A stretch of DNA of 64,000 bases, taken from Daphnia pulex. Its lineage: Eukaryota; Arthropoda; Branchiopoda; Diplostraca; Daphniidae. The notes under the pieces are model-generated. The model did no database searches. It saw only the letters and a program-made list of their open reading frames with translations, and was not told the DNA's origin. This document shows positions 48 through 39,672 of this stretch, piece after piece. Where the stretch lies: contig NC_060024.1 in assembly GCF_021134715.1 (NCBI RefSeq), positions 8,432,001 through 8,496,000 on the forward strand, given 5' to 3'. How positions within the stretch are numbered: position 1 is the stretch's first letter; the number at the start of each line of letters is the position of its first letter. The translations under genes and the position numbers were made by a program.

Positions 48-3000
48 TCAGTTGTATGCCTCAAAATCACGCTCTTCTTTAGTATTAGTTGACCGGTAAT
101 CTTCATCAGATTTTGTTAAAGTTTTGCTGACTGCAGAGTTCGGATATTGTTTGTTTTCATATTTATCCTCGTCGTTTTGTTGTTCGCCAGAGGAGATCAC
201 AAAAAGTTTCTCGTTTAAATCGTAGAGACCTGTTGCTTTGGAGCAATCGAATTCATACCACCAAACACAGACGAAATGTTCCTGACTAAAAATAGTTCCG
301 TTTGGACAGAGGAAGCTCCATTGACGATCCCCTAAACAAATATGGAAAACTTGACAACGGGCAGATACATCGGCATAATAGCCTGGCAGACGTTGCTCTG
401 AACAATTAAATTGATTGTTTGGAAGTTCAGAAAAGATGGGATAATCGGTTCCAGGCTCTCCCGGAATCGCAGAGTAATCTCCCTCACTTTCAGATCCATC
501 GTGGTCGCCAGTTTTATAGTTCTCTGCGATAGCTGCAAAAGATTTGGATGAGTCAGCTTTTTCGTTTAGTTTAGAGTTGTAAGTGGAAAGATAATCAGCA
601 GGTGATTCAATGGGTTGGGTTTTATAATTTGACTTATTTCCCGTGCTGATTGTTGGATAATTTGTGGAACTTGAGCTTTTTTCAATAGACGAATACTCAG
701 TCAAAACTGGGTTGGCTGAAGACGGCCTAACATCAACTGATAGATACTGGTCTGTACTGGTACCAGATTGATAACTAGGGGAATTTCCTTGCTTCTGATA
801 GGAATTCTCATGTTCCACTGGGTCGGAAATGACATAAACTCGATCGTTTGACTTATCCACAGAACTTGGACCAGTATTGGCATAACTAACATAAGGTGTT
901 TCACCAGGAACAAGCACTGAAGTTGGTTTCGTGTTGTAAGCCTTAGCAGGATATTGATTACTGTTGCTTTGTCCTTGAGTAGTTGAAATTGGACTCTGCT
1001 CATAAGAAGTAGGGCTGGTGTATCCCCTTTGTGTTAAATGTGTAGATGTCGCCAATGAGGAATGGGTGGTGGATTCCTCATACCTAGATGTAGTACTGTA
1101 ATAGGATGATGTTCTCTCTTGGGGAGGAATTTTATATGTTTTAGTTGTGGTTTTAGTTGTAGACTCAGTTGAGTATTTCAACGGCGCCGTGGCCTTAGTC
1201 AAAAGAACTGATGGTGACTCGGTTTGAGGATAAGACTTTAATTCTTGTGTGGAATATGGCGATTTGGTCACTGGAGAAATAGACGCAGACTTTGGTTGGT
1301 AAGGTTTTGAAGTAGGAACGTAATTTGGAACATTTTGTTTTTTAGTATCTTCGGTATGTGGTAATAGAGACTCGATTTCTCTGTAGAATCCTGGGGCAGA
1401 ATAACCTGGATTTTTGCTTTCACTGGTGTTAGATTCTTTATTCTTTTTGTAAGGTTCACTTGAGGGTTTTTCTTCCGAGCTAAAAGAAGGAAGACTCGGG
1501 GAATTAAATTTCTTCTTATTTTCAGTGTCCGGAGAAGAATCAACTTCCTTGTGGGAGAGGGAGGCAGAAGGAACTGAAACCTTTGGTTCACTTTCGTCCA
1601 CATGCGACACTTGTGATAGCTTTTTGTCATAAGATTCTTTTGAAGGTTTTTGTTCCTGTGTGCCATGAGAACTACTTGAAACGTAAGATGGGGCATCAAG
1701 TTTCTTCTTTTCTTCGTAATCTGACAGAGACTCGGCTTTCTTGTAGGACTGAGGAATAGGATAAACTGTTGTTTTCGATTTTTCTTTCTCTACATTTAAA
1801 ACATCATGTGGTTTACTCGTTGAAGGTTTATCACTCACGGTTTTGTATTGTGGTGTGGAATAAAGAGATTTGGGGATATCTTCTTTCTTCTTGTTTTCGG
1901 TAGCGGGCGAAGATTTCACATATTTCGATGATGGGGTTTCAGAATAACCTGAATACTTTAACTTGATTTTGTCCACATTATATTCTTTCTTTTCAGTATA
2001 AGAATGTTCTTTCTGTGCATAAGATTCACTTACTTCAGCTGCGGAGGATGGTGTTGTAATCTCTGATTTTGTGGGTGTCTTCAAATAAATTTCGGTTGAT
2101 GGGTAGGCTTTTGTTTCCTTATAGGTAGAAGAAACAGTAGGTTTTGAAATGGATGGTTGGGTCGTCTGGTATTTTAACGTTTCTCCTTTTGAATATGAAT
2201 TATGTTCTGGATAGCTCGCAGAATCAGATACGTACGCAGATGCATAAATCGTTGATTTTAAAGGGGAAATGTAGACTGGAACGGTTTCTGGCAACTTGAC
2301 AACAGAGACATTAGAAACTGCAGACTGAGATTGACTTTTGTGGTGTTGATTATCCGTGGGAAGCTTTTTTCCATATTGGTGGGGTTTCGTAAGTTGAGCT
2401 TGCTGGACAGGATAGGGTGATTTTGCAGGATCGATATTTTGTTGATACGTTACTGTCGATTTAGGGTTTACGGATATGGTCGGATTTGTCTTTAATGCGG
2501 GATTCGCTGCCTTTGTGTTTTGCATTGATGGAGGAATTGATTTTCCACTCTGGAAGGACGTTTCAGGGAAATTGGAGTAATGGTTAGGTATTTGAAGGGA
2601 ATTTGGCCCAACACCAAATACTACTATTCCAGGTCTCGGGGCAGCTGGGCGAACAGGCAATTGTCTTTGTGCCGAAGCTGTTGAATAAACGTTCGAGGGA
2701 GTGTGATAATTGTTGTGTGGAACGTGTAGTTGTGGTAGTTGTTGAGTTGGCAAATTTTGATTCTGATAGGCTTGAACCGAAGGTATAATCCGACGACCTT
2801 TTCCTCTTTTCTACATTTGGTAACAAATTTAGACGCGAATTAATACATATTAATAAACTTAAATATTTTTATTCGGTTTAAAATGCAAATTATTTTTGTT
2901 ACTACTAATTATTTATTTTTGTTCATTGATTTCTAAATAAGTAGGACCTGAAATATAAAACTTACGTGTGAAATGGCGTCTGTGATGTCAAGTATTCCTG

Positions 3001-6554: not shown

Positions 6555-9500
6555 TCAGTTGTATGCCTCAAAATCACGCTCTTCTTTAGTATTAGTTGAC
6601 CGGTAATCTTCATCAGATTTTGTTAAAGTTTTGCTGACTGCAGAGTTCGGATATTGTTTGTTTTCATATTTATCCTCGTCGTTTTGTTGTTCGCCAGAGG
6701 AGATCACAAAAAGTTTCTCGTTTAAATCGTAGAGACCTGTTGCTTTGGAGCAATCGAATTCATACCACCAAACACAGACGAAATGTTCCTGACTAAAAAT
6801 AGTTCCGTTTGGACAGAGGAAGCTCCATTGACGATCCCCTAAACAAATATGGAAAACTTGACAACGGGCAGTTACATCGGCATAATAGCCTGGCAGACGT
6901 TGCTCTGAACAATTAAATTGATTGTTTGGAAGTTCAGAAAAGATGGGATAATCGGTTCCAGGCTCTCCCGGAATCGCAGAGTAATCTCCCTCACTTTCAG
7001 ATCCATCGTGGTCGCCAGTTTTATAGTTCTCTGCGATAGCTGCAAAAGATTTGGATGAGTCAGCTTTTTCGTTTAGTTTAGAGTTGTAAGTGGAAAGATA
7101 ATCAGCAGGTGATTCAATGGGTTGGGTTTTATAATTTGACTTATTTCCCGTGCTGATTGTTGGATAATTTGTGGAACTTGAGCTTTTTTCAATAGACGAA
7201 TACTCAGTCAAAACTGGGTTGGCTGAAGACGGCCTAACATCAACTGATAGATACTGGTCTGTACTGGTACCAGATTGATAACTAGGAGAATTTCCTTGCT
7301 TCTGATAGGAATTCTCATGTTCCACTGGGTCGGAAATGACATAAACTCGATCGTTTGACTTATCCACAGAACTTGGACCAGTATTGGCATAACTAACATA
7401 AGGTGTTTCACCAGGAACAAGCACTGAAGTTGGTTTCATGTTGTAAGCCTTAGCAGGATATTGATTACTGTCGCTTTGTCCTTGAGTAGTTGAAATTGGA
7501 CTCTGCTCATAAGAAGTAGGGCTGGTGTATCCCCTTTGTGTTAAATGTGTAGATGTCGCCAATGAGGAATGGGTGGTGGATTCCTCATACCTAGATGTAG
7601 TACTGTAATAGGATGATGTTCTCTCTTGGGGAGGAATTTTATATGTTTTAGTTGTGGTTTTAGTTGTAGACTCAGTTGAGTATTTCAACGGCGCCGTGGC
7701 CTTAGTCAAAAGAACTGATGGTGACTCGGTTTGAGGATAAGACTTTAATTCTTGTGTGGAATATGGCGATTTGGTCACTGGAGAAATAGACGCAGACTTT
7801 GGTTGGTAAGGTTTTGAAGTAGGAACGTAATTTGGAACATTTTGTTTTTTAGTATCTTCGGTATGTGGTAATAGAGACTCGATTTCTCTGTAGAATCCTG
7901 GGGCAGAATAACCTGGATTTTTGCTTTCACTGGTGTTAGATTCTTTATTCTTTTTGTAAGGTTCACTTGAGGGTTTTTCTTCCGAGCTAAAAGAAGGAAG
8001 ACTCGGGGAATTAAATTTCTTCTTATTTTCAGTGTCCGGAGAAGAATCAACTTCCTTGTGGGAGAGGGAGGCAGAAGGAACTGAAACCTTTGGTTCACTT
8101 TCGTCCACATGCGACACTTGTGATAGCTTTTTGTCATAAGATTCTTTTGAAGGTTTTTGTTCCTGTGTGCCATGAGAACTACTTGAAACGTAAGATGGGG
8201 CATCAAGTTTCTTCTTTTCTTCGTAATCTGACAGAGACTCGGCTTTCTTGTAGGACTGAGGAATAGGATAAACTATTGTTTTCGATTTTTCTTTCTCTAC
8301 ATTTGAAACATCATGTGGTTTACTCGTTGAAGGTTTATCACTCACGGTTTTGTATTGTGGTGTGGAATAAAGAGATTTGGGGATATCTTCTTTCTTCTTG
8401 TTTTCGGTAGCGGGCGAAGATTTCACATATTTCGATGATGGGGTTTCAGAATAACCTGAATACTTTAACTTGATTTTGTCCACATTATATTCTTTCTTTT
8501 CAGTATAAGAATGTTCTTTCTGTGCATAAGATTCACTTACTTCAGCTGCGGAGGATGGTGTTGTAATCTCTGATTTTGTGGGTGTCTTCAAATAAATTTC
8601 GGTTGATGGGTAGGCTTTTGTTTCCTTATAGGTAGAAGAAACAGTAGGTTTTGAAATGGATGGTTGGGTCGTCTGGTATTTTAACGTTTCTCCTTTTGAA
8701 TATGAATTATGTTCTGGATAGCTCGCAGAATCAGATACGTACGCAGATGCATAAATCGTTGATTTTAAAGGGGAAATGTAGACTGGAACGGTTTCTGGCA
8801 ACTTGACAACAGAGACATTAGAAACTGCAGACTGAGATTGACTTTTGTGGTGTTGATTATCCGTGGGAAGCTTTTTTCCATATTGGTGGGGTTTCGTAAG
8901 TTGAGCTTGCTGGACAGGATAGGGTGATTTTGCAGGATCGATATTTTGTTGATACGTTACTGTCGATTTAGGGTTTACGGATATGGTCGGATTTGTCTTT
9001 AATGCGGGATTCGCTGCCTTTGTGTTTTGCATTGATGGAGGAATTGATTTTCCACTCTGGAAGGACGTTTCAGGGAAATTGGAGTAATGGTTAGGTATTT
9101 GAAGGGAATTTGGCCCAACACCAAATACTACTATTCCAGGTCTCGGGGCAGCTGGGCGAACAGGCAATTGTCTTTGTGCCGAAGCTGTTGAATAAACGTT
9201 CGAGGGAGTGTGATAATTGTTGTGTGGAACGTGTAGTTGTGGTAGTTGTTGAGTTGGCAAATTTTGATTCTGATAGGCTTGAACCGAAGGTATAATCCGA
9301 CGACCTTTTCCTCTTTTCTACATTTGGTAACAAATTTAGACGCGAATTAATACATATTAATAAACTTAAATATTTTTATTCGGTTTAAAATGCAAATTAT
9401 TTTTGTTACTACTAATTATTTATTTTTGTTCATTGATTTCTAAATAAGTAGGACCTGAAATATAAAACTTACGTGTGAAATGGCGTCTGTGATGTCAAGT

Positions 9501-13061: not shown

Positions 13062-16000
13062 TCAGTTGTATGCCTCAAAATCACGCTCTTCTTTAGTATT
13101 AGTTGACCGGTAATCTTCATCAGATTTTGTTAAAGTTTTGCTGACTGCAGAGTTCGGATATTGTTTGTTTTCATATTTATCCTCGTCGTTTTGTTGTTCG
13201 CCAGAGGAGATCACAAAAAGTTTCTCGTTTAAATCGTAGAGACCTGTTGCTTTGGAGCAATCGAATTCATACCACCAAACACAGACGAAATGTTCCTGAC
13301 TAAAAATAGTTCCGTTTGGACAGAGGAAGCTCCATTGACGATCCCCTAAACAAATATGGAAAACTTGACAACGGGCAGTTACATCGGCATAATAGCCTGG
13401 CAGACGTTGCTCTGAACAATTAAATTGATTGTTTGGAAGTTCAGAAAAGATGGGATAATCGGTTCCAGGCTCTCCCGGAATCGCAGAGTAATCTCCCTCA
13501 CTTTCAGATCCATCGTGGTCGCCAGTTTTATAGTTCTCTGCGATAGCTGCAAAAGATTTGGATGAGTCAGCTTTTTCGTTTAGTTTAGAGTTGTAAGTGG
13601 AAAGATAATCAGCAGGTGATTCAATGGGTTGGGTTTTATAATTTGACTTATTTCCCGTGCTGATTGTTGGATAATTTGTGGAACTTGAGCTTTTTTCAAT
13701 AGACGAATACTCAGTCAAAACTGGGTTGGCTGAAGACGGCCTAACATCAACTGATAGATACTGGTCTGTACTGGTACCAGATTGATAACTAGGAGAATTT
13801 CCTTGCTTCTGATAGGAATTCTCATGTTCCACTGGGTCGGAAATGACATAAACTCGATCGTTTGACTTATCCACAGAACTTGGACCAGTATTGGCATAAC
13901 TAACATAAGGTGTTTCACCAGGAACAAGCACTGAAGTTGGTTTCATGTTGTAAGCCTTAGCAGGATATTGATTACTGTCGCTTTGTCCTTGAGTAGTTGA
14001 AATTGGACTCTGCTCATAAGAAGTAGGGCTGGTGTATCCCCTTTGTGTTAAATGTGTAGATGTCGCCAATGAGGAATGGGTGGTGGATTCCTCATACCTA
14101 GATGTAGTACTGTAATAGGATGATGTTCTCTCTTGGGGAGGAATTTTATATGTTTTAGTTGTGGTTTTAGTTGTAGACTCAGTTGAGTATTTCAACGGCG
14201 CCGTGGCCTTAGTCAAAAGAACTGATGGTGACTCGGTTTGAGGATAAGACTTTAATTCTTGTGTGGAATATGGCGATTTGGTCACTGGAGAAATAGACGC
14301 AGACTTTGGTTGGTAAGGTTTTGAAGTAGGAACGTAATTTGGAACATTTTGTTTTTTAGTATCTTCGGTATGTGGTAATAGAGACTCGATTTCTCTGTAG
14401 AATCCTGGGGCAGAATAACCTGGATTTTTGCTTTCACTGGTGTTAGATTCTTTATTCTTTTTGTAAGGTTCACTTGAGGGTTTTTCTTCCGAGCTAAAAG
14501 AAGGAAGACTCGGGGAATTAAATTTCTTCTTATTTTCAGTGTCCGGAGAAGAATCAACTTCCTTGTGGGAGAGGGAGGCAGAAGGAACTGAAACCTTTGG
14601 TTCACTTTCGTCCACATGCGACACTTGTGATAGCTTTTTGTCATAAGATTCTTTTGAAGGTTTTTGTTCCTGTGTGCCATGAGAACTACTTGAAACGTAA
14701 GATGGGGCATCAAGTTTCTTCTTTTCTTCGTAATCTGACAGAGACTCGGCTTTCTTGTAGGACTGAGGAATAGGATAAACTATTGTTTTCGATTTTTCTT
14801 TCTCTACATTTGAAACATCATGTGGTTTACTCGTTGAAGGTTTATCACTCACGGTTTTGTATTGTGGTGTGGAATAAAGAGATTTGGGGATATCTTCTTT
14901 CTTCTTGTTTTCGGTAGCGGGCGAAGATTTCACATATTTCGATGATGGGGTTTCAGAATAACCTGAATACTTTAACTTGATTTTGTCCACATTATATTCT
15001 TTCTTTTCAGTATAAGAATGTTCTTTCTGTGCATAAGATTCACTTACTTCAGCTGCGGAGGATGGTGTTGTAATCTCTGATTTTGTGGGTGTCTTCAAAT
15101 AAATTTCGGTTGATGGGTAGGCTTTTGTTTCCTTATAGGTAGAAGAAACAGTAGGTTTTGAAATGGATGGTTGGGTCGTCTGGTATTTTAACGTTTCTCC
15201 TTTTGAATATGAATTATGTTCTGGATAGCTCGCAGAATCAGATACGTACGCAGATGCATAAATCGTTGATTTTAAAGGGGAAATGTAGACTGGAACGGTT
15301 TCTGGCAACTTGACAACAGAGACATTAGAAACTGCAGACTGAGATTGACTTTTGTGGTGTTGATTATCCGTGGGAAGCTTTTTTCCATATTGGTGGGGTT
15401 TCGTAAGTTGAGCTTGCTGGACAGGATAGGGTGATTTTGCAGGATCGATATTTTGTTGATACGTTACTGTCGATTTAGGGTTTACGGATATGGTCGGATT
15501 TGTCTTTAATGCGGGATTCGCTGCCTTTGTGTTTTGCATTGATGGAGGAATTGATTTTCCACTCTGGAAGGACGTTTCAGGGAAATTGGAGTAATGGTTA
15601 GGTATTTGAAGGGAATTTGGCCCAACACCAAATACTACTATTCCAGGTCTCGGGGCAGCTGGGCGAACAGGCAATTGTCTTTGTGCCGAAGCTGTTGAAT
15701 AAACGTTCGAGGGAGTGTGATAATTGTTGTGTGGAACGTGTAGTTGTGGTAGTTGTTGAGTTGGCAAATTTTGATTCTGATAGGCTTGAACCGAAGGTAT
15801 AATCCGACGACCTTTTCCTCTTTTCTACATTTGGTAACAAATTTAGACGCGAATTAATACATATTAATAAACTTAAATATTTTTATTCGGTTTAAAATGC
15901 AAATTATTTTTGTTACTACTAATTATTTATTTTTGTTCATTGATTTCTAAATAAGTAGGACCTGAAATATAAAACTTACGTGTGAAATGGCGTCTGTGAT

Positions 16001-19568: not shown

Positions 19569-22500
19569 TCAGTTGTATGCCTCAAAATCACGCTCTTCTT
19601 TAGTATTAGTTGACCGGTAATCTTCATCAGATTTTGTTAAAGTTTTGCTGACTGCAGAGTTCGGATATTGTTTGTTTTCATATTTATCCTCGTCGTTTTG
19701 TTGTTCGCCAGAGGAGATCACAAAAAGTTTCTCGTTTAAATCGTAGAGACCTGTTGCTTTGGAGCAATCGAATTCATACCACCAAACACAGACGAAATGT
19801 TCCTGACTAAAAATAGTTCCGTTTGGACAGAGGAAGCTCCATTGACGATCCCCTAAACAAATATGGAAAACTTGACAACGGGCAGTTACATCGGCATAAT
19901 AGCCTGGCAGACGTTGCTCTGAACAATTAAATTGATTGTTTGGAAGTTCAGAAAAGATGGGATAATCGGTTCCAGGCTCTCCCGGAATCGCAGAGTAATC
20001 TCCCTCACTTTCAGATCCATCGTGGTCGCCAGTTTTATAGTTCTCTGCGATAGCTGCAAAAGATTTGGATGAGTCAGCTTTTTCGTTTAGTTTAGAGTTG
20101 TAAGTGGAAAGATAATCAGCAGGTGATTCAATGGGTTGGGTTTTATAATTTGACTTATTTCCCGTGCTGATTGTTGGATAATTTGTGGAACTTGAGCTTT
20201 TTTCAATAGACGAATACTCAGTCAAAACTGGGTTGGCTGAAGACGGCCTAACATCAACTGATAGATACTGGTCTGTACTGGTACCAGATTGATAACTAGG
20301 AGAATTTCCTTGCTTCTGATAGGAATTCTCATGTTCCACTGGGTCGGAAATGACATAAACTCGATCGTTTGACTTATCCACAGAACTTGGACCAGTATTG
20401 GCATAACTAACATAAGGTGTTTCACCAGGAACAAGCACTGAAGTTGGTTTCATGTTGTAAGCCTTAGCAGGATATTGATTACTGTCGCTTTGTCCTTGAG
20501 TAGTTGAAATTGGACTCTGCTCATAAGAAGTAGGGCTGGTGTATCCCCTTTGTGTTAAATGTGTAGATGTCGCCAATGAGGAATGGGTGGTGGATTCCTC
20601 ATACCTAGATGTAGTACTGTAATAGGATGATGTTCTCTCTTGGGGAGGAATTTTATATGTTTTAGTTGTGGTTTTAGTTGTAGACTCAGTTGAGTATTTC
20701 AACGGCGCCGTGGCCTTAGTCAAAAGAACTGATGGTGACTCGGTTTGAGGATAAGACTTTAATTCTTGTGTGGAATATGGCGATTTGGTCACTGGAGAAA
20801 TAGACGCAGACTTTGGTTGGTAAGGTTTTGAAGTAGGAACGTAATTTGGAACATTTTGTTTTTTAGTATCTTCGGTATGTGGTAATAGAGACTCGATTTC
20901 TCTGTAGAATCCTGGGGCAGAATAACCTGGATTTTTGCTTTCACTGGTGTTAGATTCTTTATTCTTTTTGTAAGGTTCACTTGAGGGTTTTTCTTCCGAG
21001 CTAAAAGAAGGAAGACTCGGGGAATTAAATTTCTTCTTATTTTCAGTGTCCGGAGAAGAATCAACTTCCTTGTGGGAGAGGGAGGCAGAAGGAACTGAAA
21101 CCTTTGGTTCACTTTCGTCCACATGCGACACTTGTGATAGCTTTTTGTCATAAGATTCTTTTGAAGGTTTTTGTTCCTGTGTGCCATGAGAACTACTTGA
21201 AACGTAAGATGGGGCATCAAGTTTCTTCTTTTCTTCGTAATCTGACAGAGACTCGGCTTTCTTGTAGGACTGAGGAATAGGATAAACTATTGTTTTCGAT
21301 TTTTCTTTCTCTACATTTGAAACATCATGTGGTTTACTCGTTGAAGGTTTATCACTCACGGTTTTGTATTGTGGTGTGGAATAAAGAGATTTGGGGATAT
21401 CTTCTTTCTTCTTGTTTTCGGTAGCGGGCGAAGATTTCACATATTTCGATGATGGGGTTTCAGAATAACCTGAATACTTTAACTTTATTTTGTCCACATT
21501 ATATTCTTTCTTTTCAGTATAAGAATGTTCTTTCTGTGCATAACATTCACTTACTTCAGCTGCGGAGGATGGTGTTGTAATCTCTGATTTTGTGGGTGTC
21601 TTCAAATAAATTTCGGTTGATGGGTAGGCTTTTGTTTCCTTATAGGTAGAAGAAACAGTAGGTTTTGAAATGGATGGTTGGGTCGTCTGGTATTTTAACG
21701 TTTCTCCTTTTGAATATGAATTATGTTCTGGATAGCTCGCAGAATCAGATACGTACGCAGATGCATAAATCGTTGATTTTAAAGGGGAAATGTAGACTGG
21801 AACGGTTTCTGGCAACTTGACAACAGAGACATTAGAAACTGCAGACTTTGATTGACTTTTGTGGTGTTGATTATCCGTGGGAAGCTTTTTTCCATATTGG
21901 TGGGGTTTCGTAAGTTGAGCTTGCTGGACAGGATAGGGTGATTTTGCAGGATTGATATTTTGTTGATACGTTACTGTCGATTTAGGGTTTACGGATATGG
22001 TCGGATTTGTCTTTAATGCGGGATTCGCTGCCTTTGTGTTTTGCAGTGATGGAGGAATTGATTTTCCACTCTGGAAGGACGTTTCAGGGAAATTGGAGTA
22101 ATGGTTAGGTATTTGAAGGGAATTTGGCCCAACACCAAATACTACTATTCCAGGTCTCGGGGCAGCTGGGCGAACAGGCAATTGTCTTTGTGCCGAAGCT
22201 GTTGAATAAACGTTCGAGGGAGTGTGATAATTGTTGTGTGGAACGTGTAGTTGTGGTAGTTGTTGAGTTGGCAAATTTTGATTCTGATAGGCTTGAACCG
22301 AAGGTATAATCCGACGACCTTTTCCTCTTTTCTACATTTGGTAACAAATTTAGACGCGAATTAATACATATTAATAAACTTAAATATTTTTATTCGGTTT
22401 ATAATGCAAATTATTTTTGTTACTACTAATTATTTATTTTTGTTCATTGATTTCTAAATAAGTAGGACCTGAAATATAAAACTTACGTGTGAAATGGCGT

Positions 22501-27892: not shown

Positions 27893-28411
27893 GTCCTATA
27901 ACTATTCCCGAATCCTGCCTCTGTATGACAGCAGTGTTAAATGGACGTGATTTTGTTATTAATTACGTGTATTAAATTTTCCAAGCAACAACTTTATTAT
28001 TACGATTCCCTTCTAGCGTGAAAGTCGATGGCATTATGTGGTTTCCGGGTGAAAGTGAAACCGCGCGTGGCAGCGGGAAATGTCTGCAGGGTTGGTTGTT
28101 TGTATTACCTTCACTGCTACTTTTTGCCAATTATTATGTATCCGTTGCACAGTGGGTGTTACACAGTATGGAGCAGTTGGACATCGTCTGGAAATCTCAT
28201 TTGTGTCCAAAAAGGGCCAATCAGCGTACAGCCTCTTTAAAACGCTGTACGCTGATTGGCCTTTATTGGACACAAATCAGATTTCCAGACCTGGCAACGC
28301 AGGATGTCCAACTGCTCCAATGGCTATATTTTGTATAGGATAAAGTGACTTTACAAATGTCGCTATAATCGTTGGTCAGCTGATGTAGGGCTAATAAATT
28401 AATGAAAAGGC
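27893..28411. repeat. Dispersed block, copy 1
   Basis: Shares long stretches with 34793-35150, for example TTCCAAGCAACAACTTTATT, GTGAAAGTCGATGGCATTAT and CGTTGGTCAGCTGATGTA. It is either part of the tandem duplication that made the two kinase genes or a mobile repeat. A hairpin element (28169-28319) has inserted into this copy only. Confidence 0.75.
28169..28319. mobile_element. 151-bp hairpin MITE
   Basis: TGGAGCAGTTGGACAT at the left is the exact reverse complement of ATGTCCAACTGCTCCA at the right, and the interior continues as a palindrome (ATTTGTGTCCAA with TTGGACACAAAT; GGCCAATCAGCGTACAGC with GCTGTACGCTGATTGGCC). The related block at 34793-35150 lacks it, so it is an insertion. No target duplication is evident. 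Confidence 0.75.
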
Positions 28412-29094
28412 GCACAAAAAGTTCTGTGTTTCATTAAGGCATTAAATGAAGAAAAATTACTGGCACCTTAAAGTAAATGCAGCTGTAACGGCGACGGCGT
28501 TATATGGAATTGAGGAACATAACTATGGCAAGCCGTTCGTGCCACCGTTTGGTCATGCATAAACCGTAACGGAATGCATAAACAGCTGCGTAATGGTAAG
28601 CATAAACCTTAACGCAATGCATAAACAGCTAGTTAATAACCAATTAAACTAACCATTAGAAATGATCGCAATATTGGTTTTATGAATAGATGTAATATCT
28701 ATTTAAACCTAATGCGAACCCGCAATTAGATGGCTCATTTAATCGTAGTATTCTAATGCCCCGTTTTCAATCGAGCCAGTAATAGCTCGACATTTTCGCC
28801 ATCTAGGAAGGGAAATTCGAAAAATTTATTTAGAATAAAATGTCATCCCCGTAGTGTCACCTAGTGTTGCATGATACAAGATTCTCATATTCAAAAATTG
28901 TTCCCGGCACTTTTTGAATAGATATTCTTATGAATTAAGATCGGAAGCGTTTATTAGCTCCCGAAGATACAATCAAGGACATGCTAGACGAAGTCAACGT
29001 CACCCAGGGCCAAGAAGAATTGTTGAAAATGACGCGCGGCGATTATTTCACCTTTATAACCAGAGAAGACGAACTGCGTATGCTGGCGGGCCAA

Positions 29095-29460
29095 ACGTGG
29101 CCATGATGGACTTGCAGTCTGACTGCTCCGTTCCAAAGTTATCATCCTCGCTAGACGTTTCCGTAGACATTTTACCGCATTTTACTATAGACGCCGGAAA
29201 TCTTGCATAGAAAATCGCCCAGCAGTTTGATCGAGCTGTAGCGAATGCGCCAGTTGTCGTCGAACAGACCAATCCAGTTCGGGTAATAAAAGAATGATGG
29301 CGCATGCAGTCGGCGTATTTTTGACATGTAAAAAATGCGCTGCCCAGCGCGCAGGACCGTGTCTTTGACAAACATTTCTTGTCGGCGAGCGCCTTCAGTA
29401 TAAAATGATTGATCTAGCTAATGCAAGGCGTGAATCGGCGTGAATTCGATCTGGAACACT
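29095..29460 (-). pseudogene. Decayed GCN1 fragment, left arm
   Basis: Minus-strand translation in shifting frames gives VLRAGQRI, GLFDDNWRIRYSSIKLLG and MSTETSSEDDNFGTEQSDC. These match the conserved GCN1 HEAT-repeat region (canonical order: ALRAGQRI, GLFDDxWRIRxSS, TETxSEDDNFGT). GCN1 is the ribosome-associated activator of the eIF2-alpha kinase GCN2. Frameshifts, missing bases and no flanking exons show this is a captured, non-functional fragment. The assignment rests on recalled family motifs. Confidence 0.7.
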
Positions 29461-29509
29461 CCGTCAAGTAGCCTCTAGATGAACATGGTGAAATAACCAT
29501 CCTGGAAAT

Positions 29510-30110
29510 GAACGTGACAGCGCTCAATTTAGCGCCATTCATTTTATCGTATAATTTACGAAACGCATAATAATACAAGCGCTAAAATAAATATTTAGCG
29601 CCCCTTTAGTTAAATTTAGCTCGATGCGCGTGAGTATTAATTGTGATAAGTATTAATTTTAAAGCGCTTGCGCGTTTCGTATAAATAATATGACGAAATG
29701 AATTGCACGAAATTTAGCGCATCGCAGTGAATCGAGGATAAATCGTTAATGACCTGCACGCTTATAGATAGCGCGAAATCTAGCGCGAAATATTTTACTT
29801 TTCGTGCAGTTAACCACCGAAAGTGCGGACGGGCGACAGCGCAAAAATAGCGGACGGATCAGCGATGAGCGCCAGAATAGCGCGCAGGAACGGACGAGCG
29901 CCGCAATTTGTTTTCATGTCACGTCCAGTTATAATTAAATTCAGTGCGATGTGCGATAGATAGCGTTAAATATTTATTTTAGCGCTTGTGCGTTTTTTAA
30001 ATTATAAGAGATTAAATGAATTGCGCTAAATTGAGCGCATAGTGTGCAAGTTAATCATAGCGCCCTTCTCTCTTAGTAGCGCTTATTCTAGTATACGCAT
30101 CAATATTTAA
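29510..30110. repeat. Loop region dense in AGCGC/GCGCT motifs
   Basis: About 17 AGCGC or GCGCT pentamers lie in 600 bp, often as TTTAGCGC or GCGCTAAA, in otherwise AT-rich DNA. No coding sequence. The similar GAAATAGCGCGAAATAG occurs at about 26365 outside the element. Confidence 0.6.
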
Positions 30111-30419
30111 CCTAATTATTTTTGCGTACATGGTAGCCTGTAACGGCGGAAGGGCGACGCTTCGCAATAAAAAAGTGGGCGGGTCCGTCGCGTAAGAGCT
30201 AAAATAACAGAAGGACGCGCTACCCGTCCACCCAGCCGCTGCAATGATTTTTTTGTCTCAGTAAAATGATTTGGCCAAGTATATTTGCTGTTGCATTCCG
30301 ACCCTATACGTCCGATCAGCAAGAACCTCATCAAATTTTACAGCGACAGATTGGATTGGACTCCGGCCCGCTCCGGCCGTCTTCGATAATTTTGCCACGT
30401 TCATCTATAGGCCTACTTG

Positions 30420-30800
30420 GCGGAGTGTTCCAGAACGAATACACGTCAATTCATGCCTTACATTGGCAAGATCATTCGTTTTATACTGAAGGCGCTCGCC
30501 GACAAGAAATGTTTGTCATAGACAAGGTCCTGATGCGCGCCGGATGACAGCCCATTGTCAACATGCAAGTCAACATGTACGCCAACTGTGCCATCATTCT
30601 TTTGTTACCTGAACTGGAGAAGGTCTGTTCGACGACAACTGGCGCATTCGTTACAGCTCAATCAAATTGCTGGGCGAGTTGCGGTAAGATTTCCGGCGTC
30701 TCTGGTAAACTGTCTATGGAAACGGGTAGCGAGGATGATAACTTTGGAACGGAGCAGTCAGACTGCAAGTCCATCATGGCCACGTTTGGCTCGCCCGGGC
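30420..30800 (+). pseudogene. Decayed GCN1 fragment, right arm
   Basis: Plus-strand translation gives FMPYIGKIIRFILKALADKK, then after a frameshift NMYANCAIILLLPELEK, then GLFDDNWRIRYSSIKLLG in another frame, then METGSEDDNFGTEQSDC. The order is that of GCN1. It mirrors the left-arm fragment, and each arm has its own lesions, so one capture was followed by duplication in inverted orientation and independent decay. Confidence 0.72.
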
Positions 30801-31489
30801 TCACCAAACAGTTCGCCTTCTCTGGTTATAAAGGTGAAATAATCGTCGCACGTCAGCACCTCCAACAATTCTTCTTGACCCAGGGTGACGTTGACTTCGT
30901 CTAGCATGTCCTTGATTGTATCTTCGGGAGCTAATAAACGCTTCCGATCTTAATTCAGAATATATATTCAAAAAGTGCCGGGAACAATTTTTGAATATGA
31001 GAATCTTGTATCATGCAACACTAGGTGACACTACGTGGATGACATTTTATTCTAAATAAATTTTTCAAATTTCCCTTCCTAGATGGCGAAAATGTCGAGC
31101 TATTACTGGCTCGATTGAAAACGGGGCATTAGAATACTGCGATTAAATGAGCCATCTAATTGCGGGTTCGCATTAGGTTTAAATAGATATTACATCTATT
31201 CATAAAACCAATATTGCGATCATTTCTAATGGTTAGTTTTTAAAATTGGTTATTAACTAGCTGTTTATGCATTGCGTTACGGTTTATGCATGACCAAACG
31301 GTAGCACGAACGGCTTGCCATACATAACGCATAACCGTAATTAAGCAGTATTTTCAAAGATTAATATAGGAATATAGGTAGCTCCAGCTCCTCGTATACG
31401 ACTAGATCGAAGCAAAAGTAGCTAGCTTATTTATACATCGCGTTCAAATGTTTCAAGAAGTTCATTTTCTTGGTTTATAAATTGTCCTG

Positions 31490-33587: not shown

Positions 33588-34322
33588 ATGGCAAATTTTG
33601 CTAGAGAAAATAATGCATCGGAAGCAGAAATCAACCTGGATTATGTTTTTGCAACAGGTGCATTCAAATATGTATACAAGGGAAGATATACTAAAGGAAG
33701 AAGAGCCGGTCAAGAATGTGTTTGCAAAATCTTTAAATCTGGCAGTGTCTTTGAAGAATCCTACTTCCGAGTAGAACTTGATGTAGTTGCAAAGGCACTT
33801 GAAGTTGTCAACAGCTTCAACAAGGATAAAGTCATCAACAAGAGCATTTGGCTCAATAAACCAACCATTTGGACCTTCATGCCTGGTTCAGAAAGAGAAG
33901 GTGAAAAAAATTTGATGGAGCCATTGATTTTCAACTTTGAAAAATTCAATTCGAACACTGGATGGACTCCTCGAAAATCGTCTCCTTGGATCGATGTGAT
34001 GCAAGCTCTTAGTCACTATTCGTATCATTCAAGCAATCGTAGTTTGCTGTTCTGCGACCTCCAAGGTGGCGTGTACAAGGATGGATTTATCATCACTGAT
34101 CCCGTTATCATGTCAACTGCCCAGGAGTATGGACCAACTGATCTCGGTCCTGCAGGAATATCTTCTTTCTTTGCTCGCCACAAGTGCAACGAATACTGCA
34201 ATTCCGGATGGATTATTCCGCACGATAGAAGACAGTATTTCCATGTTCAGAAAGGTACTACAATGGTTCTCCCAACCCGCCAAAGTCGTACTCCATTGAC
34301 TTATAAAAAACCAGGCTTGTAA
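33588..34322 (+). CDS. Alpha-kinase domain protein, intact copy
   Basis: A 244-aa protein that is essentially one atypical alpha-kinase domain, in a single coding exon preceded by a spliced leader. Visible features: loop FATGAFKYVYKGRY (21-34), ATP-contacting Lys47 in CVCKIF, Glu111, catalytic DLQ at 157-159, Asp171 in TDP, and zinc ligands His143 plus HKCNEYC (His198, Cys200, Cys204). This is the set known from TRPM7, eEF2K and myosin heavy-chain kinases. A Ser/Thr kinase role is therefore likely; the substrate is unknown and no targeting or regulatory domain is present. It forms a tandem pair with the gene at 37106. Confidence 0.92.
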   Translation: MANFARENNASEAEINLDYVFATGAFKYVYKGRYTKGRRAGQECVCKIFKSGSVFEESYFRVELDVVAKALEVVNSFNKDKVINKSIWLNKPTIWTFMPGSEREGEKNLMEPLIFNFEKFNSNTGWTPRKSSPWIDVMQALSHYSYHSSNRSLLFCDLQGGVYKDGFIITDPVIMSTAQEYGPTDLGPAGISSFFARHKCNEYCNSGWIIPHDRRQYFHVQKGTTMVLPTRQSRTPLTYKKPGL

Positions 34323-35150: not shown

Positions 35151-37095
35151 GAAAAAAGCTCGGATTTTGAACATGTTTAACTGATTAAATAGTCTAATGT
35201 ATTTCCAGCAAAGCAATCGCTTAAAAAGTGATCTATTCGAAAATCAGAAAAAGCCTCAAATTCTAAGTTAAACGACAATGAATGTGTGTAGATAGTATTT
35301 GGCTGCCTACATATAATGAAGTATGTATATGTGATATTAACTTAGATATCATTTCACTGTTAAAACGTTTGAGCTGTCCTAATCTGAGTTTAAATTATGT
35401 ATTTCACATTTGTAAGATTGCGTTATAAGCAGACGCTACACCACTCTACACTGTCCTAGTGCAATGAAAACTAACAGAATGAAAATGAATCAATATTAGC
35501 TATGCGCGTAAGACAGGTAAATAGGCATTTTTAGAGGACTAGAATATATAATGCACTTAATTAATAATATTTTTTAGTCTAATCTTTTCCCCAACTGTCT
35601 CTTACCAGATTACCAGTTTATAAAATTAAAATATAGACACTTATAATCAACGCGTGACAAATATATATTCAACAGTGTGTAAAAAAATAAGTAAATATTA
35701 CTTTTGCGTTCATTCATCAACGATTATTCTGGATAAAAGTATACATGGTATAGGCCGTATTAGCCTATCTGTTAAATCAAGTACTAGGCCAGTTACCTGT
35801 TGATGTTATCAGCCTGGAAGACGGGAAGTTTCGTTTAATCTGCGCCGCCTTATTCGCCGCCAATCAAAATGGAGATAAAGCGCGTGCATCATTGCGTCAT
35901 CACGGTCCCTTTGAATTCTTTCATATGAGTTTACACTCCAACCAGACAAGATTAAGTTACTGGTGTTCGAAATCAGAGTCCTACGAGTAGCACCGGAAGA
36001 ATGTATATCGATGTCCTTTCTGCGGATATTATTTGATCCTGGGTTGAAAAATGCGAACAATGAACTCTCTTGTCTCTGTAGCCTATATATATATTTTGTC
36101 CAACCATATTTCTCTAATTCTTAAGTAATTATACTAAATTGTGTGCGGGGATGGGAACAGAATTATTACACCGGTATCTCTATCGAAAACTAACGTCCAT
36201 ATGCGATTATGCGAATGATGTGTGTAGTTTGTTTTCTTATCTTTGTTTTGTTTGCATGTTTTTGGTTGTAATGGAAGAAATTTCGCCAGGCTTTAAACGC
36301 CTCAAGCAAGAGGCCAACAAGTCTGAACAAGACCAAAGAATCTCGGATAACAAGACGTCGATGTTTCGAATATTGCACCATTCGTTGGCGTCTGTGCTTC
36401 AGAGTAGCATCATTCAGTCAAACGTTTGGCTAGCAGTAGGTACTGTGTTCAACATCTTCAACATCTTCACACCAATTGTTTGTAAGTTACATCAGAAAAT
36501 TCTTATTCTATATGTTTTAAAATAAACTATAAAATATATCATAGATCGTACGGTAGTGTAAGAATTAAGGATGTTGAAATCTTAAATTCAATAACGAATG
36601 TAATAACGACACTAATGAGCCTAATTCTGAAGAGTTTTTTTTTTCTAAGTTGAAGATTCTTAATTAATCTGTACAAACGTCATAATTGTGTTGGGAGTGC
36701 CGAAGTAGAAATAGATTTTTTTGTTCGTTTGATTTTACATTTTAATTTCTTGTCTTTGTCTTGAAATAGACATCAAACTAATATCGCATTGTTATAGAAA
36801 TGCGCAATGCTGTATAGCCTGTAGCTCTAATATTACCGCCCAATAACATGTTAGAATTTTTACAATGTTTATACAAGTTTATTTGTTGAAACAAGCACAG
36901 TCACAGACCAAGCATAAAGTCTGAGTTGATTTATTAGATACTAGATAATTATTTTGTTACATAATGAACTTGACAAGCATTATATTTTGAAGCTTGTAGT
37001 GCTTTAATTGTGCTTTTAACTGTTTAAAAATTCTCTACTGTACAACTCTTGAGTTTTCATGCTTCCTTTTTTTGTGTGTGTGATTTTGAATACAG
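35151..37095. other. Upstream and leader region of kinase gene 2
   Basis: No convincing gene in the first 1.2 kb. From about 36410 it is homologous to the leader of kinase 1, including TAGCAGTAGGTACTG and the donor GTAAGTTACATC. The open frame 36139-36525 overlaps this leader and is not supported as a protein. Confidence 0.5.
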
Positions 37096-37912
37096 GACCA
37101 TTAAGATGGCAAATTTTGCAAGAGAAAACAATGCAACTGAAGCAACCATCAGTATGAATTCTGTTTTTGCAACAGGTGCATTCAAAAATGTGTATAAAGG
37201 AAGATATACTGTAGGAGAAAGAGCCGGTGAAGAATGTGTCTGCAAAATCTTTAAATCTGGCAGTGTCTTTGAAGAATCCTATTTCCGAGTAGAACTTAAT
37301 GTTGTTGCAAAGGCACTTGAAGTTGTCAATAGCTTCAACAAAGATAAAGTCATCAACAAGAGCATTTGGCTCAACAAACCAACCATTTGGACCTTCATGC
37401 CTGGTTCGGGAAGAGAAGGTGAAAAAAATCTGATTGAGCCAATGATTTCCAACTTTGAAAAATTCAATTCTAACAGGGTGTCCCTAAACTATGGACTTGG
37501 ACAGTCCATTTTGGACTACTAAACTATGGACTTCGATCGAAAACTATGGACTTCACCAGATGGCGCTGCCTGTCCGAAACTATGGACTTAGGGACCTAAA
37601 ATATGGACTTTAACCTGCAGAAACTATGGACTCCATCAGATGGCGTTATATCCGAAACACTGGACTTGGCGTCTAAAGTATGGACTTTAAATGTATAAAC
37701 TTGGCTTAGATCCGAATATTTTCGCTTAAGTTTTAAACGGTTCAATGAATATATCTTTTAATTAAATTTAAGCAAACCACAAATTCATTCTGAATGGTGT
37801 ATTGCGAGTATTGATACACGATTTACAAGGTACATTTTGAACATTTCAAAAAAGGTTTTATTATTCTTGAATTGACATTTGAGAAAAGAAATAAAACAAA
37901 GTCATTTAACGT

Positions 37913-39000: not shown

Positions 39001-39672
39001 CTAGAAAGCTCGTGGCTTCTTGCAGTTTATTGAACGGACGTTAAATATATAAAACAAAAAAATGATAGAACGATTCGTAGTTTATGTTTTATGTTGAATT
39101 TGGATAAAGTCCATACTTTTCAGGAAAAGTCCATAGTTTAGTATGGTCATTGGTGGAGCGTTCAGGTTCTAAAATATGGACTTTGACAGGCAGCGCCATC
39201 TGGTGAAGTCCATAGTTTTCGATCGAAGTCCATAGTTTAGTAGTCCAAAATGGACTGTCCAAGTCCATAGTTTAGGGACACCCATTCTAACACTGGATGG
39301 ACTCCTCGAAAATCGTCTCCTTGGATCGATGTGATGCAAGCTCTTAGTCACTATTCGTATCATTCAAGTAATCGCCGTCTGCTGTTCTGTGACCTCCAAG
39401 GTGGCGTGTACAAGGATGGATTTATCATCACTGATCCTGTTATCATGTCAACTGCCCAAGAGTATGGACCAACTGATCTCGGCGCTGCAGGAATATCTAC
39501 TTTCTTTGCTCGCCACAAGTGCAACAAATACTGCAATTCCGGATGGATTATTCCGCATGATAGAAAAGTTTATTTCAATGTTCAGAAAGGTTCTGCAATG
39601 GTTCTCCCAACCCGCCAAAGTCGTACTCCATTGACTTTACAATTATCAGGCTTGTCTATTCAAGAAGAATAA

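What the first reader, a model, noticed from the sequence alone, without database searches (positions are those of the whole stretch)
28488..31345. Foldback structure carrying inverted, decayed GCN1 fragments in both arms
Both arms contain recognisable GCN1 HEAT-region text (GLFDDNWRIRYSSIKLLG, SEDDNFGTEQSDC) in opposite orientation with independent frameshifts. Capture of a translation-control gene fragment followed by inverted duplication is unusual, and the inverted GCN1 sequence could in principle yield double-stranded or small RNA matching the real GCN1 gene.
Basis: partly seen in the sequence, partly recalled or inferred. Interest (0 to 1): 0.75.

Follow-up and report, generated by a model that had tools for sequence, protein, structure and literature searches.

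The report
Jumping DNA carrying mirrored GCN1 scraps
A transposon in what is probably a water-flea genome picked up three scraps of the cell's GCN1 gene, came to hold them in a mirror-image structure and was copied to a second place; it looks like decaying gene cargo rather than a working regulator, although whether it makes small RNAs against GCN1 has not been tested.

Summary
Window 28524-31322 is a terminal-inverted-repeat (TIR) DNA transposon without a recognised transposase, flanked by a 6-bp target-site duplication (CATAAC). Both arms carry two exon pieces (A, B) of the genome's GCN1 gene in opposite orientation; the right arm has a third (C). A second full copy with the same layout (C8:4319940-4322836) has its own duplication, ATTTGG, so the palindrome moved as a unit. 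Four further places hold GCN1 pieces; the end of one is 92% identical to that of a 13.6-kb element encoding an Ulp1 protease, a PHD finger and a weak IS256/ISL3/MULE-like transposase piece.

Both left arms keep 8 nt that match the intron end, so genomic DNA was probably captured. Variable sites ignore codon position. In the GCN1 cargo the two arms of one element differ by 6.5-19%, matching arms of the two copies by 2.3-6.7%; in the TIR this is reversed. So pairing has not been kept up across the cargo. No 21-mer of the window copy matches the GCN1 locus exactly (copy 2: two). Verdict: a multicopy Pack-TIR with palindromic cargo. A GCN1-silencing hairpin is not excluded, but nothing here supports a selected one.

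The parts
28518..28523 (.). left target-site duplication CATAAC
   Evidence: identical hexamer on the other side of the element; copy 2 has its own, ATTTGG
28524..28952 (+). left TIR arm; starts TATGGCAAGCCGTTCGTGCCAC, with two 38-nt subterminal repeats
   Evidence: 99% complementary to the right arm over 28646-28928; the 20-nt end has 27 matches in the genome at up to 2 mismatches, the backwards control 1
28953..29076 (+). GCN1 piece A, left arm, sense (C6:788404-788527)
   Evidence: 87.9% over 124 nt, E 2.6e-40
29087..29509 (-). GCN1 piece B, left arm, antisense (C6:792257-791872), including 8 nt that match the inferred intron 3' end
   Evidence: 78.7% over 427 columns, E 1.4e-100; intron remnant in the alignment
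29510..30311 (.). spacer between the cargo arms, rich in AGCGC repeats with many diverged relatives in the genome
   Evidence: hits of roughly 66-85% to query 1175-1797 on many contigs (only 40 of 100 first-look candidates were scored)
30312..30394 (+). GCN1 piece C, right arm only, sense (C6:789749-789821, interrupted)
   Evidence: 84% over 57 nt plus 86% over 22 nt (E 0.017 alone); 86% over 73 nt in copy 2
30413..30793 (+). GCN1 piece B, right arm, sense (C6:791903-792257)
   Evidence: 78.5% over 386 columns, E 4.4e-88
30808..30935 (-). GCN1 piece A, right arm, antisense (C6:788528-788404)
   Evidence: 85.9% over 128 columns, E 3.9e-38
30936..31322 (-). right TIR arm
31323..31328 (.). right target-site duplication CATAAC

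Best explanation
It is a non-autonomous TIR DNA transposon that carries host gene fragments (a multicopy Pack-TIR). Shown: TIR ends, 6-bp target-site duplications at two different insertions, the same three-piece GCN1 cargo in both, and changes that ignore codon position. Well supported: genomic (unspliced) origin. Inferred: a broken element was refilled by copying from the GCN1 gene; both broken ends copied in the GCN1 sense direction and were then joined, giving TIR-A-then reversed B and C, with about 2 kb lost between B and C. An inverted duplication then made the palindrome, and a relative's transposase, encoded by elements such as C9:5865922-5879511, moved it as a unit. Repair between the TIRs keeps them alike within each copy, while the GCN1 cargo in the two arms drifts apart. 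Any double-stranded RNA from a read-through transcript would be an unselected by-product.
For: TIR ends and TSDs CATAAC and ATTTGG. 88.6% second full copy. Same A, B, C layout in both copies, and A|B in the single-arm copy C10:3764647. A 4.1-kb GCN1 search gave 17 matches: the gene itself and 16 in 6 places; five of the 6 also match this element's TIR region or its end, the sixth (C9:5434618) is known by cargo only. The end region of the C10:3764647 copy is 91.8% identical over 404 columns to the right end of the C9 element, which encodes Ulp1 (5.7e-7), PHD (1.4e-6) and weak ISL3/MULE/IS256-like pieces. ATTTCCAG|GATGG in both left arms matches the gene's intron end. Variable sites among five arms by codon position, A+B, are 37/164, 38/165, 40/164, chi-square P 0.92. 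Within 28524-29500 all 14 'same within copy' sites lie at 28546-28911, all 54 'same between copies' sites from 29006 inward, and none is of the third kind.
Against: The transposase assignment is weak (best Pfam E 4.5e-4, below its cut-off). The C9 element is flanked by a 17-bp imperfect repeat, not a 6-bp one. Five other copies with one TIR end in the stretches read (C10:3764647, C10:6893199, C2:8079490, C7:7500448, C8:1991912) showed no opposite end within 3 mismatches (C10:3764647 has one 4-mismatch match at 3768404), so they do not prove mobility. In piece A of the window copy the arm-arm difference (6.5%) is no larger than that between right arms of the two copies (6.7%). Only two arms reach the intron end. 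The exon border is inferred from the open frame, not from an annotation. The gap-filling and doubling steps are inferred. No related genome was available to show an empty site.
Confidence: 0.86

Rival explanations
1. A functional hairpin-RNA locus: the palindrome is transcribed and diced, and the siRNAs trim GCN1 mRNA, as Drosophila hpRNAs do with their parent genes.
For: Inverted arms with sense and antisense GCN1 sequence. 99 of 5,558 21-mers of the window element and 142 of 5,754 of copy 2 lie within 1 mismatch of the GCN1 locus. Drosophila hpRNAs are proposed to derive from their targets, and one has about 200 bp of homology to a gene's exon in its arms (PMC10317233, passages).
Against: Exact 21-mers: 0 of 5,558 in the window element, 2 of 5,754 in copy 2. 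Cargo arms of one element differ by 6.5-12% in A, 11-12% in B1 and 18-19% in B2, against 3.3-6.7%, 2.3-5.0% and 2.3-3.4% for matching arms of the two copies, so pairing was not restored in the cargo after the copies split. No expression data.
Confidence: 0.06
2. Unselected source of piRNA or siRNA: the element makes small RNAs through ordinary transposon silencing, with at most weak spill-over on GCN1.
For: Multicopy transposon with near-identical TIR arms. piRNA-producing clusters were identified in Daphnia magna (PMC9175491, start of abstract in a search listing).
Against: No RNA data. Cargo similarity to GCN1 is only 78-88%.
Confidence: 0.25
3. A processed (mRNA-derived) GCN1 pseudogene that later became inverted.
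For: The pieces are almost wholly exonic.
Against: 8 nt matching the intron end beside the exon in both left arms. Piece ends do not follow exon ends, and order and orientation are scrambled. TIR and TSD structure.
Confidence: 0.03

Closest known systems
Pack-TIRs of animals (Tan et al. 2021, PMC8277862; abstract, outline and passages seen)
   Same: TIR DNA transposons carrying duplicated host sequence; multicopy ones are thought to spread by transposition after fork switching.
   Different: Here three rearranged pieces of one gene lie as a palindrome, and the copies are old (77-89% identical to the window copy). The word Daphnia does not occur in that paper's main text.
Mutator-like elements and Rehavkus (Dupeyron et al. 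2019, PMC6446971; passages seen)
   Same: [quoted passage not shown] Rehavkus is listed with a PHD finger and occurs in arthropods.
   Different: The TSD is 6 bp in both full copies, against 9 bp listed for Rehavkus and 8-11 bp for the MULE groups in the part of the table that I saw. An Ulp1 domain is present. The transposase match is weak.
Drosophila hpRNA loci (PMC10317233; passages seen)
   Same: Inverted repeat with arms homologous to a protein-coding gene.
   Different: This is a dispersed transposon; exact siRNA-length matches to the gene are absent (window copy) or nearly so (copy 2); there is no RNA evidence.

Membership tests
Pack-TIR | terminal inverted repeats bounding the unit | tested here: met
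Pack-TIR | target-site duplication | tested here: met
   CATAAC (window) and ATTTGG (copy 2)
Pack-TIR | host gene fragment inside, with the parent gene elsewhere | tested here: met
   GCN1 on C6
Pack-TIR (multicopy) | same cargo at more than one independent insertion | tested here: met
   window and C8:4319940-4322836 with different TSDs
Mutator-like element / Rehavkus | TSD of about 8-11 bp (9 bp for Rehavkus) | tested here: not met
   6 bp in both full copies; 17-bp imperfect flanking repeat at C9
Mutator-like element / Rehavkus | MULE-type DDE transposase in the autonomous relative | tested here: inconclusive
   one piece: ISL3 4.5e-4 and MULE 0.088 in Pfam, IS256 7.5e-4 and ISL3 1.1e-3 in NCBIfam, all below the curated cut-offs; pieces searched apart
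Rehavkus | PHD finger in the transposase protein | tested here: inconclusive
   PHD 1.4e-6 on the Ulp1-bearing frame of L033, not shown to be one protein with the transposase piece
Rehavkus | minisatellite before the 3' TIR | not tested
   -
hpRNA locus | inverted repeat homologous to a target gene | tested here: met
hpRNA locus | siRNA-length stretches fully matching the target | tested here: inconclusive
   0 of 5,558 (window), 2 of 5,754 (copy 2) 21-mers exact
hpRNA locus | Dicer-dependent siRNAs | not testable with these tools
   no RNA data

The most novel reading that the evidence does not exclude
A transposon has made a mobile hairpin from three parts of a conserved translation-control gene, and transcripts of its copies yield small RNAs that lower GCN1, so that the element tunes the host's amino-acid stress response or its own silencing. 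The many 21-mers within one mismatch and the two exact ones in copy 2 do not exclude this.
Probability: 0.05. Interest if true: 0.8.

Novelty: new member of a known kind. Interest (0 to 1): 0.36.

Why it matters
It is a clear animal example of gene capture by a TIR transposon whose cargo then became a mobile palindrome. The switch from within-copy to between-copy similarity near the TIR/cargo border shows that the TIRs have been made alike within each copy while the cargo has not. It also offers a ready test of whether mobile palindromes of gene fragments make small RNAs. If the GCN1 hairpin were expressed, it would link a transposon to translation control.

Tried and rejected
Rejected: processed pseudogene (intron remnant). 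Rejected: protein-coding remnant (no codon-position bias among arms). Rejected: an isolated curiosity (other copies). Considered and not adopted: filing it as Rehavkus or MULE (TSD length not met, transposase match weak).

Led nowhere: Rfam and tRNA scans of the window, 0 matches each. RNA folding of two single-arm stretches gave z-scores of -0.13 and -0.38. A possible fourth GCN1 piece in the right arms (32 nt, 72%, E 0.14 and 0.15) is at chance level. A PDB sequence search of the Ulp1/PHD frame gave 11 sequences, matched over the PHD part, best E 5.5e-4.

Literature, held open library only. Pack-MULE with Daphnia: 2 papers, neither about Daphnia by title and abstract start. GCN1 with transpos and Daphnia: 1 paper, on ABC transporters by title. 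Hairpin RNA, endo-siRNA, inverted repeat, gene fragment, Daphnia, at least 4 of 5 terms: 0 papers. Daphnia pulex with Mutator-like terms: 140 papers with at least 2 of 4 terms, 12 listed. Dada transposons: 15 papers, 8 listed, none opened. Pack-MULE small-RNA terms: 67 papers, 10 listed, none opened. A 2026 survey of arthropod MULEs (PMC13359780, two passages seen) has 0 occurrences of Daphnia, Ulp1 or PHD in its main text. TAGGCCTA: 5 papers listed, none on point by title.

Full report
Setting. The window is C8:8432001-8496000 of a 133.2-Mb, 13-contig genome. Size, contig number and gene content fit Daphnia pulex; that is recall and inference, no tool named the species.

The structure. One search finds a long interrupted palindrome: 28646-28928 pairs with 30957-31239 at 99%, and pairing continues inward in blocks of 97% to 83%. 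The ends are set by comparison with other copies: TATGGCAAGCCGTTCGTGCCAC at 28524 and the matching end at 31322, flanked by CATAAC on both sides. The second full copy, C8:4319940-4322836, has the same ends and is flanked by ATTTGG on both sides. Two different 6-bp duplications mean that the palindrome was inserted as a unit. The 20-nt end occurs 27 times in the genome at up to 2 mismatches; the backwards control occurs once.

The cargo. Alignment to the GCN1 gene on C6 gives piece A (788404-788529), piece B (791872-792257) and, in right arms only, piece C (789749-789821). From the TIR inward an arm reads A sense, then B antisense, then C antisense. In copy 2 the C and B pieces are nearly contiguous (4321763-4321835, then 4321837 on), so about 2 kb of gene between 789821 and 791894 is missing. 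The A|B joint is shared by all four arms and by the single-arm copy at C10:3764647, so it probably arose once. The left arms of both copies read ATTTCCAG then GATGG, where the gene has ATTTCCAG (inferred intron end) then GATGG (exon), so genomic DNA was probably copied; the right arms and the single-arm copy do not reach that point. A 4.1-kb stretch of the gene gave 17 matches in the genome: the gene itself and 16 in 6 places (8 of 8 first-look candidates scored). A protein query gave 8 matches: the GCN1 exon, another exon of the same gene (C6:790517-790738) and 6 in element copies.

Relatives. The copy at C10:3764647 has an end region 91.8% identical over 404 columns to the right end of a 13.6-kb unit at C9:5865922-5879511. 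That unit encodes, in separate frames, a piece with weak ISL3 (4.5e-4), IS256 (7.5e-4) and MULE (0.088) matches, an Ulp1 protease domain (5.7e-7) and a PHD finger (1.4e-6). It is the best candidate for a transposase source. The window element itself shares less with it: 26 nt at 96% at the end and 185 columns at 68% further in. The unit's flanking repeat is 17 bp with one mismatch, which does not fit 6 bp and is unexplained. The copies at C10:6893199 and C2:8079490 carry only the first 75 and 56 nt of A. C9:5434618-5434826 carries C and B and is nearer to right arms (11.6-14.5% different) than to left arms (21-24%); no TIR end within 3 mismatches was seen there.

How it evolves. At sites informative among the two arms of the two copies, within 28524-29500, all 14 that group the arms of one copy lie at 28546-28911, all 54 that group matching arms of different copies lie from 29006 inward, and none supports the third grouping. 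Distances agree: in the inner TIR, 1.3% and 3.2% between the arms of each copy against 4.6% and 6.2% between matching arms; in B1, 11.9% and 11.1% against 2.3% and 5.0%; in B2, 19.4% and 18.3% against 3.4% and 2.3%. Piece A is in between: 6.5% and 11.9% against 3.3% and 6.7%, so for the right arm of the window copy there is no difference there. Thus the TIRs are made alike within a copy, probably by repair between them (inference), while most of the cargo is not. Among five arms (L1, R1, L2, R2 and C10:3764647; the shorter pieces at C10:6893199, C2 and C9 were left out) variable sites are spread evenly over GCN1 codon positions (37/164, 38/165, 40/164; P 0.92). The arm majority differs from GCN1 at 16, 17 and 27 sites by codon position (P 0.12); the lean to third positions is not significant.

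Could it silence GCN1? The longest exact matches to the GCN1 locus are 20 nt (window copy) and 22 nt (copy 2). Exact 21-mers: 0 of 5,558 and 2 of 5,754; within one mismatch: 99 and 142; a reversed control has none within three mismatches (compared with the 10-kb gene locus, introns included). A transcript through the palindrome would form double-stranded RNA, but the cargo pairing is decaying. I therefore put a selected GCN1-directed hairpin at about 0.05-0.06. Unselected small RNAs from ordinary transposon silencing remain open.

Place among known things. Tan et al. (PMC8277862, abstract and passages) describe 370 Pack-TIRs in 100 animal genomes and propose gap filling or fork switching as origins; this element has the features tested. 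The order A forward, then B and C reversed, is what one would expect if both ends of a broken element copied from GCN1 in the sense direction and were then joined; this is inference. Membership in MULE or Rehavkus is not claimed, because the TSD is 6 bp and the transposase match is weak.

Limits. One genome only, no relatives, no RNA data, no gene annotation, and 16 of the 27 TIR-end places were not read. On rechecking, the number of unread places, the TIR-end control and the distances in piece A were corrected, and confidence was lowered from 0.87 to 0.86 for the piece-A result.

Noticed in passing
window 25055, 25576, 25644, 25768, 30408, 33313, 61000; L019:5752; L020:4611: TAGGCCTA occurs 7 times in the window against 0.39 expected. 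In the arm alignments GGCCTA appears as a 6-8-bp insertion next to TA at three places that differ between copies. TATAGGCCTAC occurs 483 times in the genome against 61 for the backwards control. This may be a recurrent micro-insertion or excision footprint.
   Followed up: partly
window 48-2753, 6555-9260, 13062-15767, 19569-22274 (- strand): Four near-identical units spaced 6,507 bp apart, each with a 901-aa ORF; the one scanned (19569-22274) has a chitin-binding CBM_14 domain.
   Followed up: no
window 28186-28290: A separate short hairpin with 52-nt arms at 90% complementarity and 1 nt between them, just outside the element, possibly a small MITE.
   Followed up: no
window 33588-34322, 37049-37522, 39331-39672: Alpha-kinase (PF02816) ORF and partial repeats of it downstream of the element (the third by eye from its translation).
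   Followed up: no
L032:3265-3834: A trypsin-like fragment (PF00089, 1.2e-5) inside the 13.6-kb C9 element, perhaps another captured gene piece.
   Followed up: no
L032 and L033, flanks of C9:5865922-5879511: The C9 element is flanked by a 17-bp imperfect direct repeat instead of a 6-bp duplication.
   Followed up: no
L034; C10:4466988, 8868377, 8904572, 9939390: A subgroup on C10 with TTCTTGCC-type TIR ends shares an interior with many C10 places and with the copy at C10:6893199.
   Followed up: no
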